The position numbers and the translations under genes are program-made. A stretch of DNA of 64,000 bases, from the NCBI RefSeq assembly GCF_000466965.1, contig NZ_BATB01000003.1, positions 1 to 64,000 of the forward strand, written 5' to 3'. The notes beneath the pieces are model-generated. The model searched no databases and was not told the origin of the DNA. It was given only the letters and a program-made list of their open reading frames with translations. This document shows, piece after piece, positions 28,657 through 31,851 of this stretch (position 1 is its first letter; the number at the start of each line of letters is the position of its first letter). This stretch comes from Limimaricola cinnabarinus LL-001 (GTDB lineage: Bacteria; Pseudomonadota; Alphaproteobacteria; Rhodobacterales; Rhodobacteraceae).

Positions 28657-28861
28657 GCCCGTATCCCCGTCCGACCGGCCCGGGTTGACCCGGATCGCGG
28701 TGCTGCTCTGCCGGGGCACAAGATGACGCAAGCCGGAGCGCTGTGCAATTCGACCACGCGGCACTGCATCGGGGTTTGCCTCACGATGGCGTGAGCGGAT
28801 GCGCGCGGCCCGCCCGCGCGGCCCCATTGACCGAAACACCGAACCCCTGCATATGCGGGCC

Positions 28862-30658
28862 ATGACCGAGCTTTCGCACATCCGCAACTTCTCCATCGTG
28901 GCGCATATCGACCACGGTAAATCGACGCTTGCCGACCGGCTGATCCAGTCGACCGGGACGGTGCAGGACCGCGAGATGAAGGCCCAGCTGCTCGACAGCA
29001 TGGACATCGAGCGCGAGCGCGGCATCACCATCAAGGCGCAGACCGTCCGCATCGACTACAAGGCGCTCAATGGCGAGACCTATGTTCTCAACCTGATCGA
29101 CACGCCCGGTCACGTCGATTTCGCCTATGAAGTCTCCCGCTCGATGCGCGCGGTCGAGGGCTCGCTTCTCGTGGTCGATTCGACCCAAGGGGTCGAGGCG
29201 CAGACGCTCGCCAACGTTTACCACGCGCTCGACGCGGATCACGAGATCGTCCCGGTCCTGAACAAGATCGACCTGCCGGCCTCGGAGCCCGACCGGATCA
29301 AGGAGCAGATCGAGGACGTGATCGGCATCGACGCCTCCGAGGCGATGCTGGTCTCTGCCAAGACCGGCGAGGGCATCCGCGAGACGCTCGAAGCCATCGT
29401 CCACCGCCTGCCCGCGCCCAAGGGCGACCGCGACGCGCCGCTCAAGGCGATGCTGATCGATTCGTGGTACGACCTCTACCTGGGCGTCGTGGTTCTCGTG
29501 CGGATCATGGACGGCGTGCTCAAGAAGAACGACCGCATCACCTTCATGCAGAACGGCACCATCCATCAGGTCGACCGGATCGGCGTGTTCAAGCCGGGCA
29601 TGCTCCCGGTCGAGGAGCTGGGGCCGGGCGAGATCGGCTTTCTCACCGCCTCGATCAAGCAGGTGCGTGACACCAAGGTCGGCGACACCATCACCCACGA
29701 GAAGAAGGGCGCGACGACGCCGCTGCCGGGCTTTGCGCCTTCGGTGCCGGTGGTGTTCTGCGGCCTCTTCCCGGTCGATTCGGCCGAGTTCGAGGATCTG
29801 CGCAACGCCATCGAGAAGCTGGCGCTGAACGACGCCTCCTTCTCCTACGAGATGGAGACCTCGGCAGCCCTCGGCTTCGGCTTCCGTTGCGGTTTCCTCG
29901 GGCTCTTGCACCTCGAAGTCATCCGCGACCGGATCGATCGGGAATACGACATCGACCTGATCACCACCGCGCCCTCGGTGGTCTATCACGTGCACATGCG
30001 CGACGGCACGATGCAGGAGCTGCACAACCCCGCCGACATGCCCGACCTCACCCATGTCGATCATATCGAGGAGCCGCGGATCAAGGCGACGATCATGGTC
30101 CCCGACGACTATCTGGCGACGTGCTCAAGCTGTGTCAGGACCGGCGCGGCATTCAGCAGGAGCTGACCTATGCGGCTCGCGCCCGCTGGTGGTCTATGAC
30201 CTGCCGCTCAACGAGGTGGTGTTCGACTTCTACGACCGGCTGAAATCGGTGACCAAGGCTACGCCAGCTTCGACTACCAGATCACCGGCTACCGGCAGGA
30301 CAACCTCGTGAAAATGTCGATCCTCGTCAATGACGAGCCGGTCGACGCGCTGTCGATGATGGTGCACCGCGACCGGGCCGAGATGCGGGGCCGGGCGATG
30401 GTGGAAAAGCTCAAGGAGCTGATCCCCCGCCACATGTTCAAGATCCCGATCCAGGCCGCGATCGGCGGCAAGGTCATCGCCCGCGAGACGCTTTCGGCGA
30501 TGCGCAAGGACGTGACGGCCAAGTGCTATGGCGGCGACGCGACCCGAAAGCGCAAGCTGTTGGACAAGCAGAAGGCGGGCAAGAAGAAGATGCGCCAGTT
30601 CGGCAAGGTGGACATTCCGCAGGAGGCGTTCATCTCTGCGTTGAAGATGGATAGTTAA
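28862..30658 (+). CDS. lepA: Elongation factor 4 (LepA), frame interrupted three times
   Basis: Ribosome back-translocase GTPase. The start at 28862 gives [23 protein letters not shown]1 is AHIDHGKS (14-21), switch II is DTPGHVDF, G4 is NKID, and the LepA-specific C-terminal domain ends [33 protein letters not shown]. The frame is broken by three one-base losses from GGG runs: 30115 (CTGGCGAC for CTGGGCGAC), 30174 (GCGGCTCG for GCGGGCTCG) and 30257 (AAGGCTAC for AAGGGCTAC). Repair gives 599 aa, the standard length, with no residue lost. These look like sequence errors, not decay. Confidence 0.93.
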
Positions 30659-30691
30659 ACTTATAGTTGACTACCTATAGTAGTATGAAGC

Positions 30692-30725
30692 AACCTCCAG
30701 CTGTATGGCTGGAGGTTTTTTTTTT
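30692..30725 (+). terminator. lepA terminator that also carries the Shine-Dalgarno of the next gene
   Basis: Perfect 10-bp stem AACCTCCAGC (30692-30701) with GCTGGAGGTT (30708-30717), loop TGTATG, then ten T in a row (30716-30725): a strong Rho-independent terminator 34 bp after the lepA stop. The next ATG is at 30726, immediately after the T-run, and GGAGG in the 3' arm (30711-30715) is the only Shine-Dalgarno candidate for it. Confidence 0.9.
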
Positions 30726-31628
30726 ATGACTAAGTTCGAAGTTGGAAGCCCTATCCTTGCCAGGATTCATAACGAGAGAAACTTAACAAAAGGCGAGTGC
30801 TACTTTGTGGGATTTCTTGAAGGGGTTCTTGCGAATAAGAGAATAGACAATACGGAAGTTGAGCCGTTACTCGAAACATGCCAAGCATTCTGTGAAAACT
30901 TTAATGATGACGATGCGCGTGAGATTCTAACTGAAGCTGCTCAGGACTATGTCGACACTGTTTCTGAACTACTGCAGCTCATAGGTTGCATTGTTGAGTG
31001 TCGTCTAGGAAAAATAGATACAACTTGCCCAAAAAGCAGCGCAAATAGATTATTAGGATTTTGTGCCGGGGTGGCATGTGATGGCGTGATCACCATCAAT
31101 GAGGTTCGCTCTCTGCTTGACCGGTTGAGTGCTCCATCTGATTTGCAGGAAGATTTAAGGGTGACGGCACTAAAACGCATATGCGCAGAGGCACTTGAAG
31201 ACGACTTAGTCGACAGCGATGAGGAAAGGGAGATCGCTGATTGGATAGCAAGGCTCGTAGGGGATAGTTACAGCGACACTGGCCTTACGACTTTTGGTTC
31301 ATCTCCGGTTCTCGATGATAATGTGGAGTTCGATTTATCGAATCTTCATAGGGATGAGGTATTTGTCCTGACGGGCAACTTTGAAGCATGTTCACGAGCA
31401 GATTTTGCCGAAGCCTTGAACGCTAGGGGTCTGAATCAAGCTAGAAGCGTCAGTAAAAAAGTGTCCTATGTTATTGTGGGGAATGAAGCTGCCCGTGATT
31501 GGCGTCTAGCATCAATGGGAACGAAGATGCAGAGAGCATTTCAATTGAAAAGTCAGGGGCATCCGATCAAAATCGTCAGCGAATCCAAGTTTCGGAAACT
31601 ATTCGAAGGAGCGGGGCTTGGGGCCTAA
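30726..31628 (+). CDS. Foreign, AT-richer gene: duplicated TerB-like helical module plus C-terminal BRCT domain
   Basis: 300 aa. Residues 211-293 form a BRCT domain of the DNA-ligase type (EVFVLTGNF, SVSKKVSYVIVGNEAARDW, then GHPIKIVSESKF). The N-terminal half is helical with an internal repeat: FVGFLEGVLANKRIDNTEVEPLLE (28-51) aligns with LLGFCAGVACDGVITINEVRSLLD (109-132) as GF..GV....I...EV..LL, and a weaker third copy lies near 160-175. This resembles TerB/DUF533-type modules. Base and codon use differ sharply from neighbours (AGA, TTA, ATA common; 28 of 60 bases G+C at 30901-30960 against 42 of 60 at 30361-30420 in lepA). Likely horizontally acquired. A DNA-associated role is inferred from BRCT; no enzyme motif is seen. 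Confidence 0.8.
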   Translation: MTKFEVGSPILARIHNERNLTKGECYFVGFLEGVLANKRIDNTEVEPLLETCQAFCENFNDDDAREILTEAAQDYVDTVSELLQLIGCIVECRLGKIDTTCPKSSANRLLGFCAGVACDGVITINEVRSLLDRLSAPSDLQEDLRVTALKRICAEALEDDLVDSDEEREIADWIARLVGDSYSDTGLTTFGSSPVLDDNVEFDLSNLHRDEVFVLTGNFEACSRADFAEALNARGLNQARSVSKKVSYVIVGNEAARDWRLASMGTKMQRAFQLKSQGHPIKIVSESKFRKLFEGAGLGA

Positions 31629-31851
31629 CCGTATATCGATCTTTCACCCCGCCCACTCTTCTCCTGCAACGCATCGATCCGCTCGCTGGCCTCGGCCTTG
31701 GTTAGCCCGTCGTCGAACGCCTCACCGGCCTCCTCGGACAGCGTCTTGAGATAGCTCGCCTGCGCGCGGTCATCTTCTCGTCGCCGGTCACCCAATCCTC
31801 GGGGTTCTTCTCGGCGTTACCCTGCGGATGGCTCTTGGGGTTGTCGGTCAT
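31625..31851 (-). CDS. DUF3072 family small protein, frame interrupted
   Basis: Begins MTDNPKSHPQGNAEKNPEDWVTGDEKMT, then, after restoring one base missing at about 31767, AQASYLKTLSEEAGEAFDDGLTKAEASERIDALQEKSG, the conserved DUF3072 core (about 75 aa in all). It is paralogous to the intact copy at 39832-40032 (compare LRDLCDKTGEEFDASLTERQADERISVLQEQ). Its TAG stop shares bases with the TAA of the convergent BRCT gene (CTAA at 31625-31628). Function unknown. The tail after LQEK differs from the paralogue and may have been replaced at the junction. Confidence 0.7.

What the first reader, a model, noticed from the sequence alone, without database searches (positions are those of the whole stretch)
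30726..31628. Foreign-looking gene with a duplicated TerB-like module and a BRCT domain, alone between lepA and DUF3072
Seen: sharply lower G+C (28/60 at 30901-30960 against 42/60 at 30361-30420) and a different codon style from everything around it. The N-terminal half contains an internal repeat (residues 28-51 and 109-132, pattern GF..GV....I...EV..LL, possible third copy near 160-175), joined to a ligase-type BRCT domain (211-293). Known: BRCT domains mediate DNA-repair contacts or bind phosphopeptides and DNA ends; TerB-like modules occur in stress and phage-defence systems. Inference: a one-gene acquired element, possibly a defence or DNA-damage adaptor.
Basis: partly seen in the sequence, partly recalled or inferred. 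Interest (0 to 1): 0.7.

Follow-up and report, generated by a model that had tools for sequence, protein, structure and literature searches.

The report
Single-gene swap site after lepA
A lone foreign gene, related to a phage protein with a DNA-end-binding type of domain, sits directly after the housekeeping gene lepA, at a spot where related bacteria often carry a different single gene, several of them of anti-phage type.

Summary
In detail: window 30726-31628 encodes a solitary 300-aa protein, GC 0.46, with an internal duplication and a LigA/RFC1-type BRCT domain. 'TerB' is not confirmed: the N-terminal half is a duplicated eight-helix unit sharing only a short D-G...E motif with TerB. The protein belongs to PHROG_3989 (function unknown) and partly matches PADLOC candidate PDC-S48. 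Relatives are patchy lone genes, or lie between repressor and integrase in temperate phages, as Orf2 of K139 does.

The larger finding is the site. In eight genomes of the genus, 13-15 kb after lepA is collinear, but the first gap holds a different single low-GC gene in seven and nothing in one; cargoes include ThsB-like TIR, AriAB-like ATPase, HARE-HTH and HEPN-like proteins. In the sample of the family, 33 of 66 genomes carry such a gene. Like for like, 12 of 26 lepA loci do, against 1 of 29 and 0 of 29 for two control genes. This insert has no integrase; three genomes keep a broken second lepA end beside the cargo.

Best reading: a prophage-type accessory gene, probably defence or exclusion, in a single-gene exchange site. 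Sensing of DNA ends is inferred; no function was tested.

The parts
28799..30658 (+). lepA, left flank of the site; in this assembly broken by three single-base deletions between about 30114 and 30257
   Evidence: intact in 7 of 7 same-genus genomes (open frames of 657-804 aa)
30659..31646 (.). the inserted stretch: collinearity with sister genomes stops at the lepA stop codon and resumes at about 31647
30692..30725 (+). lepA-type terminator (11-pair stem, then T run) ending at the base before the start codon; resembles the terminator at the empty site of genome G003
   Evidence: the consensus scan alone is not above chance (2 found, 1.4 expected)
30711..30715 (+). GGAGG in the 3' arm of the terminator stem, 10 nt before the ATG; possible ribosome-binding site hidden by the hairpin (inference)
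   Evidence: reading
30726..31628 (+). the gene: 300-aa protein of family PHROG_3989
   Evidence: start supported by homologues beginning with M at the same column
30765..31016 (+). helical module 1 (residues 14-97, four helices)
31017..31271 (+). helical module 2 (residues 98-182, four helices), a duplicate of module 1
31338..31610 (+). BRCT domain (residues 205-295) with T216, G217, R224, G265, K267 invariant in the 34 aligned homologues
   Evidence: family name not tested here

Best explanation
The gene is a prophage-type accessory gene, most likely a single-gene anti-phage or superinfection-exclusion factor. It sits in a recurrent, apparently integrase-free single-gene exchange site at the lepA 3' end, where genomes of this bacterial family hold different cargo genes or none. 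Shown by computation: foreign composition, absence from sister species, the variable site, the duplicated helical N-terminal half, the LigA/RFC1-type BRCT domain, and relatives in lysogeny operons of temperate phages. Inferred: that it acts against incoming DNA. Proposed mechanism: the BRCT domain binds 5'-phosphorylated ends or nicks of invading or replicating phage DNA, and the helical modules oligomerise or bind a metal or partner to block replication or recruit a host nuclease. No catalytic domain was recognised, so it would be a sensor or adaptor rather than a nuclease.
For: No match in 7 of 7 same-genus genomes; full-length relatives are rare. 13-15 kb collinear except this gap, with seven unrelated single genes and one empty site in 8 genomes. 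Low-GC ORF of at least 150 aa at lepA's 3' end in 33 of 66 genomes. With equal methods lepA 12 of 26, glyA 1 of 29, third gene 0 of 29. Cargo in the genus: ThsB1-like TIR 2.6e-59, AriAB-like 1.4e-26, HARE-HTH, HEPN-like below cut-off; in the family GmrSD_N/NsnA, FRG/PDC-S15, DUF3800, SocA, SIR2-like below cut-off. P0001: PHROG_3989 1.9e-40, PDC-S48 4.4e-10 over 119-294. Phage context: cI-orf2-glo-int in K139; repressor-BRCT-variable gene-integrase in viral contigs. Neighbours in relatives: Shango SngA/B/C (L011), PDC-S37/Hhe (L221, L224), KAP/PDC-S20 (L241). BRCT T-G...R...GTK aligns with RFC1, and T-G...R with LigA.
Against: No test of function for this family was found in the searches made or in the passages seen of two K139-family papers. 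PDC-S48 is only a candidate, and the match covers 176 of 300 residues. Many relatives sit alone with no defence neighbour recognised (neighbours of only a few were scanned). 3 of 7 genus cargoes, and 6 of 10 family cargoes scanned, have no PADLOC match. The BRCT domain alone is equally usual in repair proteins. No promoter-like site was found before the gene and a terminator abuts its start, so expression is not established. About half the relatives do not stand out by GC: 17 of 32 loci with both flanks are lower than both by 0.03 or more (my count).
Confidence: 0.6

Rival explanations
1. A lysogeny-control gene: it works with the S24-type (CI/LexA-like) repressor next to it in prophages, sensing DNA ends during damage and tuning prophage induction; the chromosomal solo copies are prophage leftovers.
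For: Directly after a repressor in K139 and in L237, L238, L239, L241 (Pfam for L237); a Peptidase_S24 protein also precedes it in L219 and L031.
Against: This copy has no repressor beside it, and none was recognised beside most chromosomal copies (not all neighbours were scanned). Yet most frames are open: 28 of the 33 ranges loci read without a stop (L203 after trimming 12 nt, L216 with a length not divisible by three).
Confidence: 0.15
2. A DNA-repair or ligase adaptor: a stand-alone BRCT protein that recruits LigA, polymerase or clamp to nicks, acquired by chance and kept for repair.
For: The BRCT is closest to LigA and RFC1.
Against: Patchy, phage-linked, foreign composition here, several broken copies; it shares its site with unrelated genes, several of defence type.
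Confidence: 0.12
3. The site is only a permissive gap between convergent genes that keeps chance insertions; there is no exchange mechanism and no link to defence.
For: In this genome the lepA stop and the next gene's stop face each other, so insertion is harmless; no integrase or shared boundary repeat was found; no gradient of synonymous divergence along lepA.
Against: Strong excess over two control genes; three cargo families recur at the same site at 27-51% identity; broken lepA 3' ends next to cargo in three genomes.
Confidence: 0.2

Closest known systems
PHROG_3989 (phage protein family, function unknown), with Orf2 of Vibrio phage K139 and kp3 of phage Kappa as homologues
   Same: Full-length match E 1.9e-40; two helical modules plus BRCT; 26% identity to Orf2 over 97% of the query
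   Different: Here it is chromosomal, without phage genes, at the lepA 3' end
PADLOC candidate PDC-S48
   Same: Residues 119-294 match, E 4.4e-10
   Different: The profile has 411 positions and only 241-406 are matched; the N-terminal module is not covered; a candidate only
BRCT domains of NAD-dependent DNA ligase LigA and of RFC1
   Same: Fold (Z 10.6 and 8.7); T-G...R...GTK with RFC1, T-G...R with LigA
   Different: No ligase or clamp-loader parts; a duplicated helical module instead
P2/P4 prophage hotspots of antiviral systems (PMC9122126; start of abstract in the search listing, and a term search of the text)
   Same: A variable slot holding antiviral genes; relatives of this gene sit between repressor and integrase in K139 (Peduoviridae) and similar viral contigs
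   Different: The slot here is chromosomal, behind lepA, in this genome one gene long and without an integrase; BRCT does not occur in that text and 'lepA' only as an author's name
Chromosomal hotspots and defence islands in general (PMC8791490; passages seen)
   Same: High turnover of acquired, often defence-related genes at one locus
   Different: Explained there by decaying mobile elements; here mostly single genes, and fragments of the host gene rather than element remnants

Membership tests
PHROG_3989 | full-length profile match | tested here: met
   E 1.9e-40, residues 12-293 on profile positions 6-292 of 296
BRCT domain | Pfam PF00533 above the gathering score | tested here: inconclusive
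   20.1 bits against 21.3; 30 of 34 homologues match at E up to 0.1
BRCT domain | BRCT fold | tested here: met
   Z 10.6, rmsd 1.7, 77 residues to LigA; RFC1 Z 8.7
5'-phosphate DNA-end-binding BRCT subclass (RFC1/LigA type; binding role recalled, not read here) | conserved T-G, R and G-T-K positions | tested here: met
   T216, G217, R224, G265 and K267 invariant in 34 sequences; aligned with RFC1
5'-phosphate DNA-end-binding BRCT subclass | actual binding of 5'-phosphorylated ends | not testable with these tools
   needs a binding assay
TerB | Pfam PF05099 match | tested here: not met
   no match in P0001 or in any of 34 homologues at E up to 0.1
TerB | profile-profile similarity | tested here: inconclusive
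   hhalign probability 0.5-16; best stretch 23 columns at the D-G...E motif
TerB | TerB fold | tested here: inconclusive
   N-terminal model pLDDT 89.7; no PDB match at E under 0.001 and none with Z of 8 or more
PADLOC PDC-S48 | profile match over the whole model | tested here: not met
   only profile positions 241-406 of 411
Known anti-phage defence system | shown protection against phage | not testable with these tools
   no assay
Classical integrase-borne genomic island | integrase gene in the element | tested here: not met
   the insert holds one gene only; a simple recombinase-motif scan of the 66 lepA regions gave one doubtful ORF, in G159
Classical integrase-borne genomic island | flanking direct repeat of the target gene end | tested here: not met
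   no second lepA end found in this genome; clear second ends only in G004, G045, G148 of 67 genomes
Defence hotspot | different genes, several of defence type, at one site in related genomes | tested here: met

The most novel reading that the evidence does not exclude
The lepA 3' end is a family-wide, integrase-free exchange slot in which single immune genes are swapped one for one between species, carried on short DNA pieces with host-gene flanks (perhaps by gene transfer agents, for which a marker gene is present in 6 of 8 genomes of the genus), and often joined to lepA transcription. The PHROG_3989 protein is a new single-gene immune sensor that recognises DNA ends with an RFC1-type BRCT domain.
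Probability: 0.25. Interest if true: 0.8.

Novelty: new variant of a known kind. Interest (0 to 1): 0.62.

Why it matters
If right, one can list candidate immune genes simply by reading what follows lepA in this family: 33 of 66 genomes sampled carry a candidate there, and 9 of the 17 cargo proteins scanned had no PADLOC match. It would also test an open question: whether defence genes move as single genes by homology to core-gene flanks, without mobile-element machinery. And it gives a concrete function to test for phage K139 Orf2 and its family.

Tried and rejected
TerB membership: tested by Pfam, by profile comparison with 14 TerB sequences from relatives, and by structure search of the N-terminal half alone; not confirmed. 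Solved TerB structures did not appear among the listed fold matches, which does not exclude the fold.

Homologous recombination anchored in lepA: 4-fold-site divergence along lepA in 21 pairs of 7 genomes (G000 left out, its frame is broken) shows no drop towards the 3' end (window means 0.14 to 0.29); not supported, not excluded. Gene transfer agents: GTA_TIM matches in 6 of 8 genus genomes, this one included, G001 and G003 without; this shows feasibility only.

A fixed boundary repeat or att site: none seen by eye in the eight left and right junctions. A shared terminator as target: the CCTCC...GGAGG hairpin occurs in only 2 of 66 lepA 3' ends, against 1 of 258 control windows. Second lepA ends: besides the three clear ones, G001 and G120 gave weak hits (E 0.03-0.04) taken as chance; G045 was added to the 66 because one search listed two lepA matches in it.

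A conserved partner gene: among three flanking ORFs on each side, few recur apart from prophage neighbours, loci of the same genome and a few pairs. lepA next to homologues: only L201 among 62 context loci, on the other side of lepA; possibly chance.

The PHROG_3989 search of the class and phylum is dominated by LigA BRCT hits: 363 of 385 and 367 of 398 genomes 'match', but only a handful are stand-alone members.

Papers: ten searches answered and one turned down for its wording; nothing on a lepA defence hotspot, PDC-S48 or the function of Orf2 was found in this library. The 'lepA' hits in PMC9122126 and PMC8791490 are the author name Lepanse; its five other papers were not opened. PMC4012209 mentions BRCT and TerB only as fusion partners of WYL domains (passage).

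Full report
What is there. Window 30726-31628 (+) encodes 300 aa. Its GC is 0.463 and GC3 0.43, against GC3 0.82 +/- 0.09 (minimum 0.51) for 45 other ORFs of at least 200 aa; the lowest-GC 900-bp windows of the 64 kb lie on it. The N-terminal half is a duplication: residues 14-97 and 98-182 align as profiles with probability 96.5, and the model of this half (mean pLDDT 89.7) has two sets of four helices. The C-terminal domain is a BRCT of the LigA/RFC1 kind, with T216, G217, R224, G265 and K267 invariant in 34 aligned homologues; all five line up with RFC1, the first three also with LigA. That RFC1-type BRCTs bind 5'-phosphorylated DNA ends is recalled, supported here only by PDB titles such as 2k7f. 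The TerB label is not confirmed.

Its family. P0001 matches PHROG_3989 over its whole length (E 1.9e-40), and PADLOC PDC-S48 over residues 119-294. Annotated relatives are Orf2 of Vibrio phage K139 and kp3 of Kappa (in K139 the lysogenic operon reads cI-orf2-glo-int), half-length versions such as that of Pseudomonas phage Lodos beside integrase and BamE genes, and copies on four plasmids, one of them covering more than 80% of the query. A scan of named genomes gave 33 loci, nearly all alphaproteobacterial, the nearest in Pseudooceanicola and Roseovarius at 41-43% identity. In viral contigs L237, L238, L239 and L241 the gene follows an S24/CI-type repressor and is followed by one or more variable genes and then an integrase (Pfam for L237 only; the L239 integrase is by appearance). 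On chromosomes no neighbour is conserved. Its GC is below both flanks by 0.03 or more in 17 of 32 loci that have both flanks (my count). In 5 of those 33 loci the matched stretch contains a stop when read straight through, although some are draft assemblies. A few copies sit beside defence genes: Shango SngA/B/C in Hymenobacter, PDC-S37/Hhe in L221 and L224, a KAP ATPase (PDC-S20) in L241. True stand-alone members are rare: among the matches listed, full-length copies in 3 of 385 class genomes (this one included) and, apart from this genome, 5 of 398 phylum genomes plus 5 half-length ones; nearly all other hits are in long LigA-like frames. In 101 relatives, 7 had a match: this genome, G016 (full length, 31%), G022 (half length) and four in long frames.

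Its site. None of 7 same-genus genomes has a match. lepA is present in 8 of 8, and the following DNA is collinear, in main blocks of 82-88% identity over 13-15 kb. The one interval that differs everywhere is the gap right after lepA: P0001 in G000, a ThsB1-like TIR protein in G001, an AAA ATPase (PDC-M28C 3.9e-7; weak ORC-CDC6-like Pfam match) in G002, HARE-HTH with a weak GIY-YIG match in G004, a HEPN-like protein (Pfam below cut-off) in G005, an OLD/AriAB-like ATPase in G006, an unnamed protein in G007, and nothing in G003. Insert GC is 0.45-0.49 in all seven. In G003, G005 and G007 the homology to the short convergent ORF is also lost. Small differences elsewhere exist: gaps under 200 bp towards the far end and a 445-bp stretch in G003 after glyA.

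How widespread. In 58 further family genomes, chosen from 177 with a lepA match among 198, 26 carry an ORF of at least 150 aa, beginning within 900 bp of lepA, with GC at least 0.08 below lepA's; with the genus, 33 of 66. Of these 25 are in lepA's direction and 8 opposed. By first possible start codon 12 of the 25 begin within 50 nt of the lepA stop (11 if G000's homology-supported start, 68 nt away, is used), so they may share its transcript (inference). Only 5 pairs of cargoes are homologous (27-51% identity), leaving 29 distinct groups. Under one method applied to the best-scoring loci of three searches, a low-GC ORF follows lepA in 12 of 26, glyA in 1 of 29 and a third gene in 0 of 29 usable loci (Fisher p 0.00025 and 0.00002); a GC drop of 0.12 or more is seen in 13 of 26, 2 of 29 and 2 of 29 (dropped for short or unreadable ends: 2 of 28, 1 of 30, 1 of 30; the control sets include G000 and G004, the lepA set does not). 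Of 20 cargo proteins from 19 of the 26 family genomes scanned with Pfam, 15 had some match: GmrSD_N, FRG, DUF3800 (twice), HARE-HTH, SocA/Panacea, DUF2971, DUF7946 (twice), HTH_3 (twice, one weak), a ClpP-like protease, and SIR2_2, PLDc_2 and HATPase_c_2 below cut-off; 5 had none. Of 10 scanned with PADLOC, 4 matched (NsnA, PDC-S15, weak SIR2, weak mad1) and 6 did not.

How genes may get in. No integrase accompanies this insert. Three genomes of 67 (G004, G045, G148) keep a degenerate second copy of the lepA 3' end, about 150-170 nt, between lepA and the foreign DNA; in G148 the mechanical DUF3800 frame begins inside this fragment. This fits cargo arriving together with a donor's lepA end, or serial insertions; it does not prove either. 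Gene transfer agents are a feasible carrier (GTA_TIM in 6 of 8 genus genomes), but lepA shows no 3' gradient of synonymous divergence. In this genome a lepA-type terminator ends at the base before the start codon, and its 3' arm holds a GGAGG 10 nt before the ATG (the terminator scan alone is not above chance, the likeness to the G003 terminator is the better evidence); no promoter-like site was found before the gene. Translation may therefore need read-through of the hairpin (inference).

Most likely function. A single-gene exclusion or defence factor of prophage origin. No catalytic domain was recognised, so the proposed role is a sensor or adaptor binding DNA ends or nicks through the BRCT pocket, with the helical modules as oligomer, metal or partner site. 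Rough odds: accessory cargo at a swap site 0.9; defence or exclusion 0.6-0.65; the specific DNA-end mechanism 0.25. Rivals are lysogeny control, repair adaptor, and a merely permissive gap.

Novelty. Defence hotspots and P2/P4 hotspots are known (PMC9122126, search listing and term search; PMC8791490, passages). I found no report of lepA as such a site, of PDC-S48, or of Orf2's function, in searches of this library, which lacks most subscription journals.

Noticed in passing
window 30114-30257: lepA carries three single-base deletions, in or beside short runs of G or C, relative to four sister genomes, giving a broken frame in this assembly; sequencing error is likely but not shown.
   Followed up: partly
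L201 5380-8340: In a Pseudooceanicola contig the homologue sits directly before lepA, on the other side from the window; the contig ends just after lepA.
   Followed up: partly
L113 874-1725 (genome G148): A DUF3800 protein frame begins inside a decayed lepA 3' fragment, as if the cargo were fused to the old lepA end.
   Followed up: no
L022 452-1984 and L084 4940-6451: The same AAA ATPase family (51% identity) lies behind lepA in two genera; HARE-HTH proteins (G004, G056) and an HTH family (G057, G200, G219) also recur there.
   Followed up: partly
L124 (G055:C17:22435-22743): Genome G055 has a second, 92% identical lepA C-terminal stretch on another contig; G047 and G236 have lepA split at contig ends, as a repeated 3' end might cause.
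   Followed up: no
L011 1-5576: A Hymenobacter plasmid carries a half-length BRCT relative right after a Shango-like SngA/B/C trio.
   Followed up: partly
L221 7968-14619 and L224 7851-13691: BRCT relatives next to a large helicase-nuclease of the Hhe/PDC-S37 type in two different genomes.
   Followed up: partly
L237, L238, L239, L241 (viral contigs): Prophages keep repressor and BRCT gene while the next gene before the integrase varies (a KAP ATPase and unnamed proteins): a possible phage-borne swap slot.
   Followed up: partly
G000:C128:7301-8185: The genome encodes a gene-transfer-agent GTA_TIM protein (E 2.7e-146).
   Followed up: no
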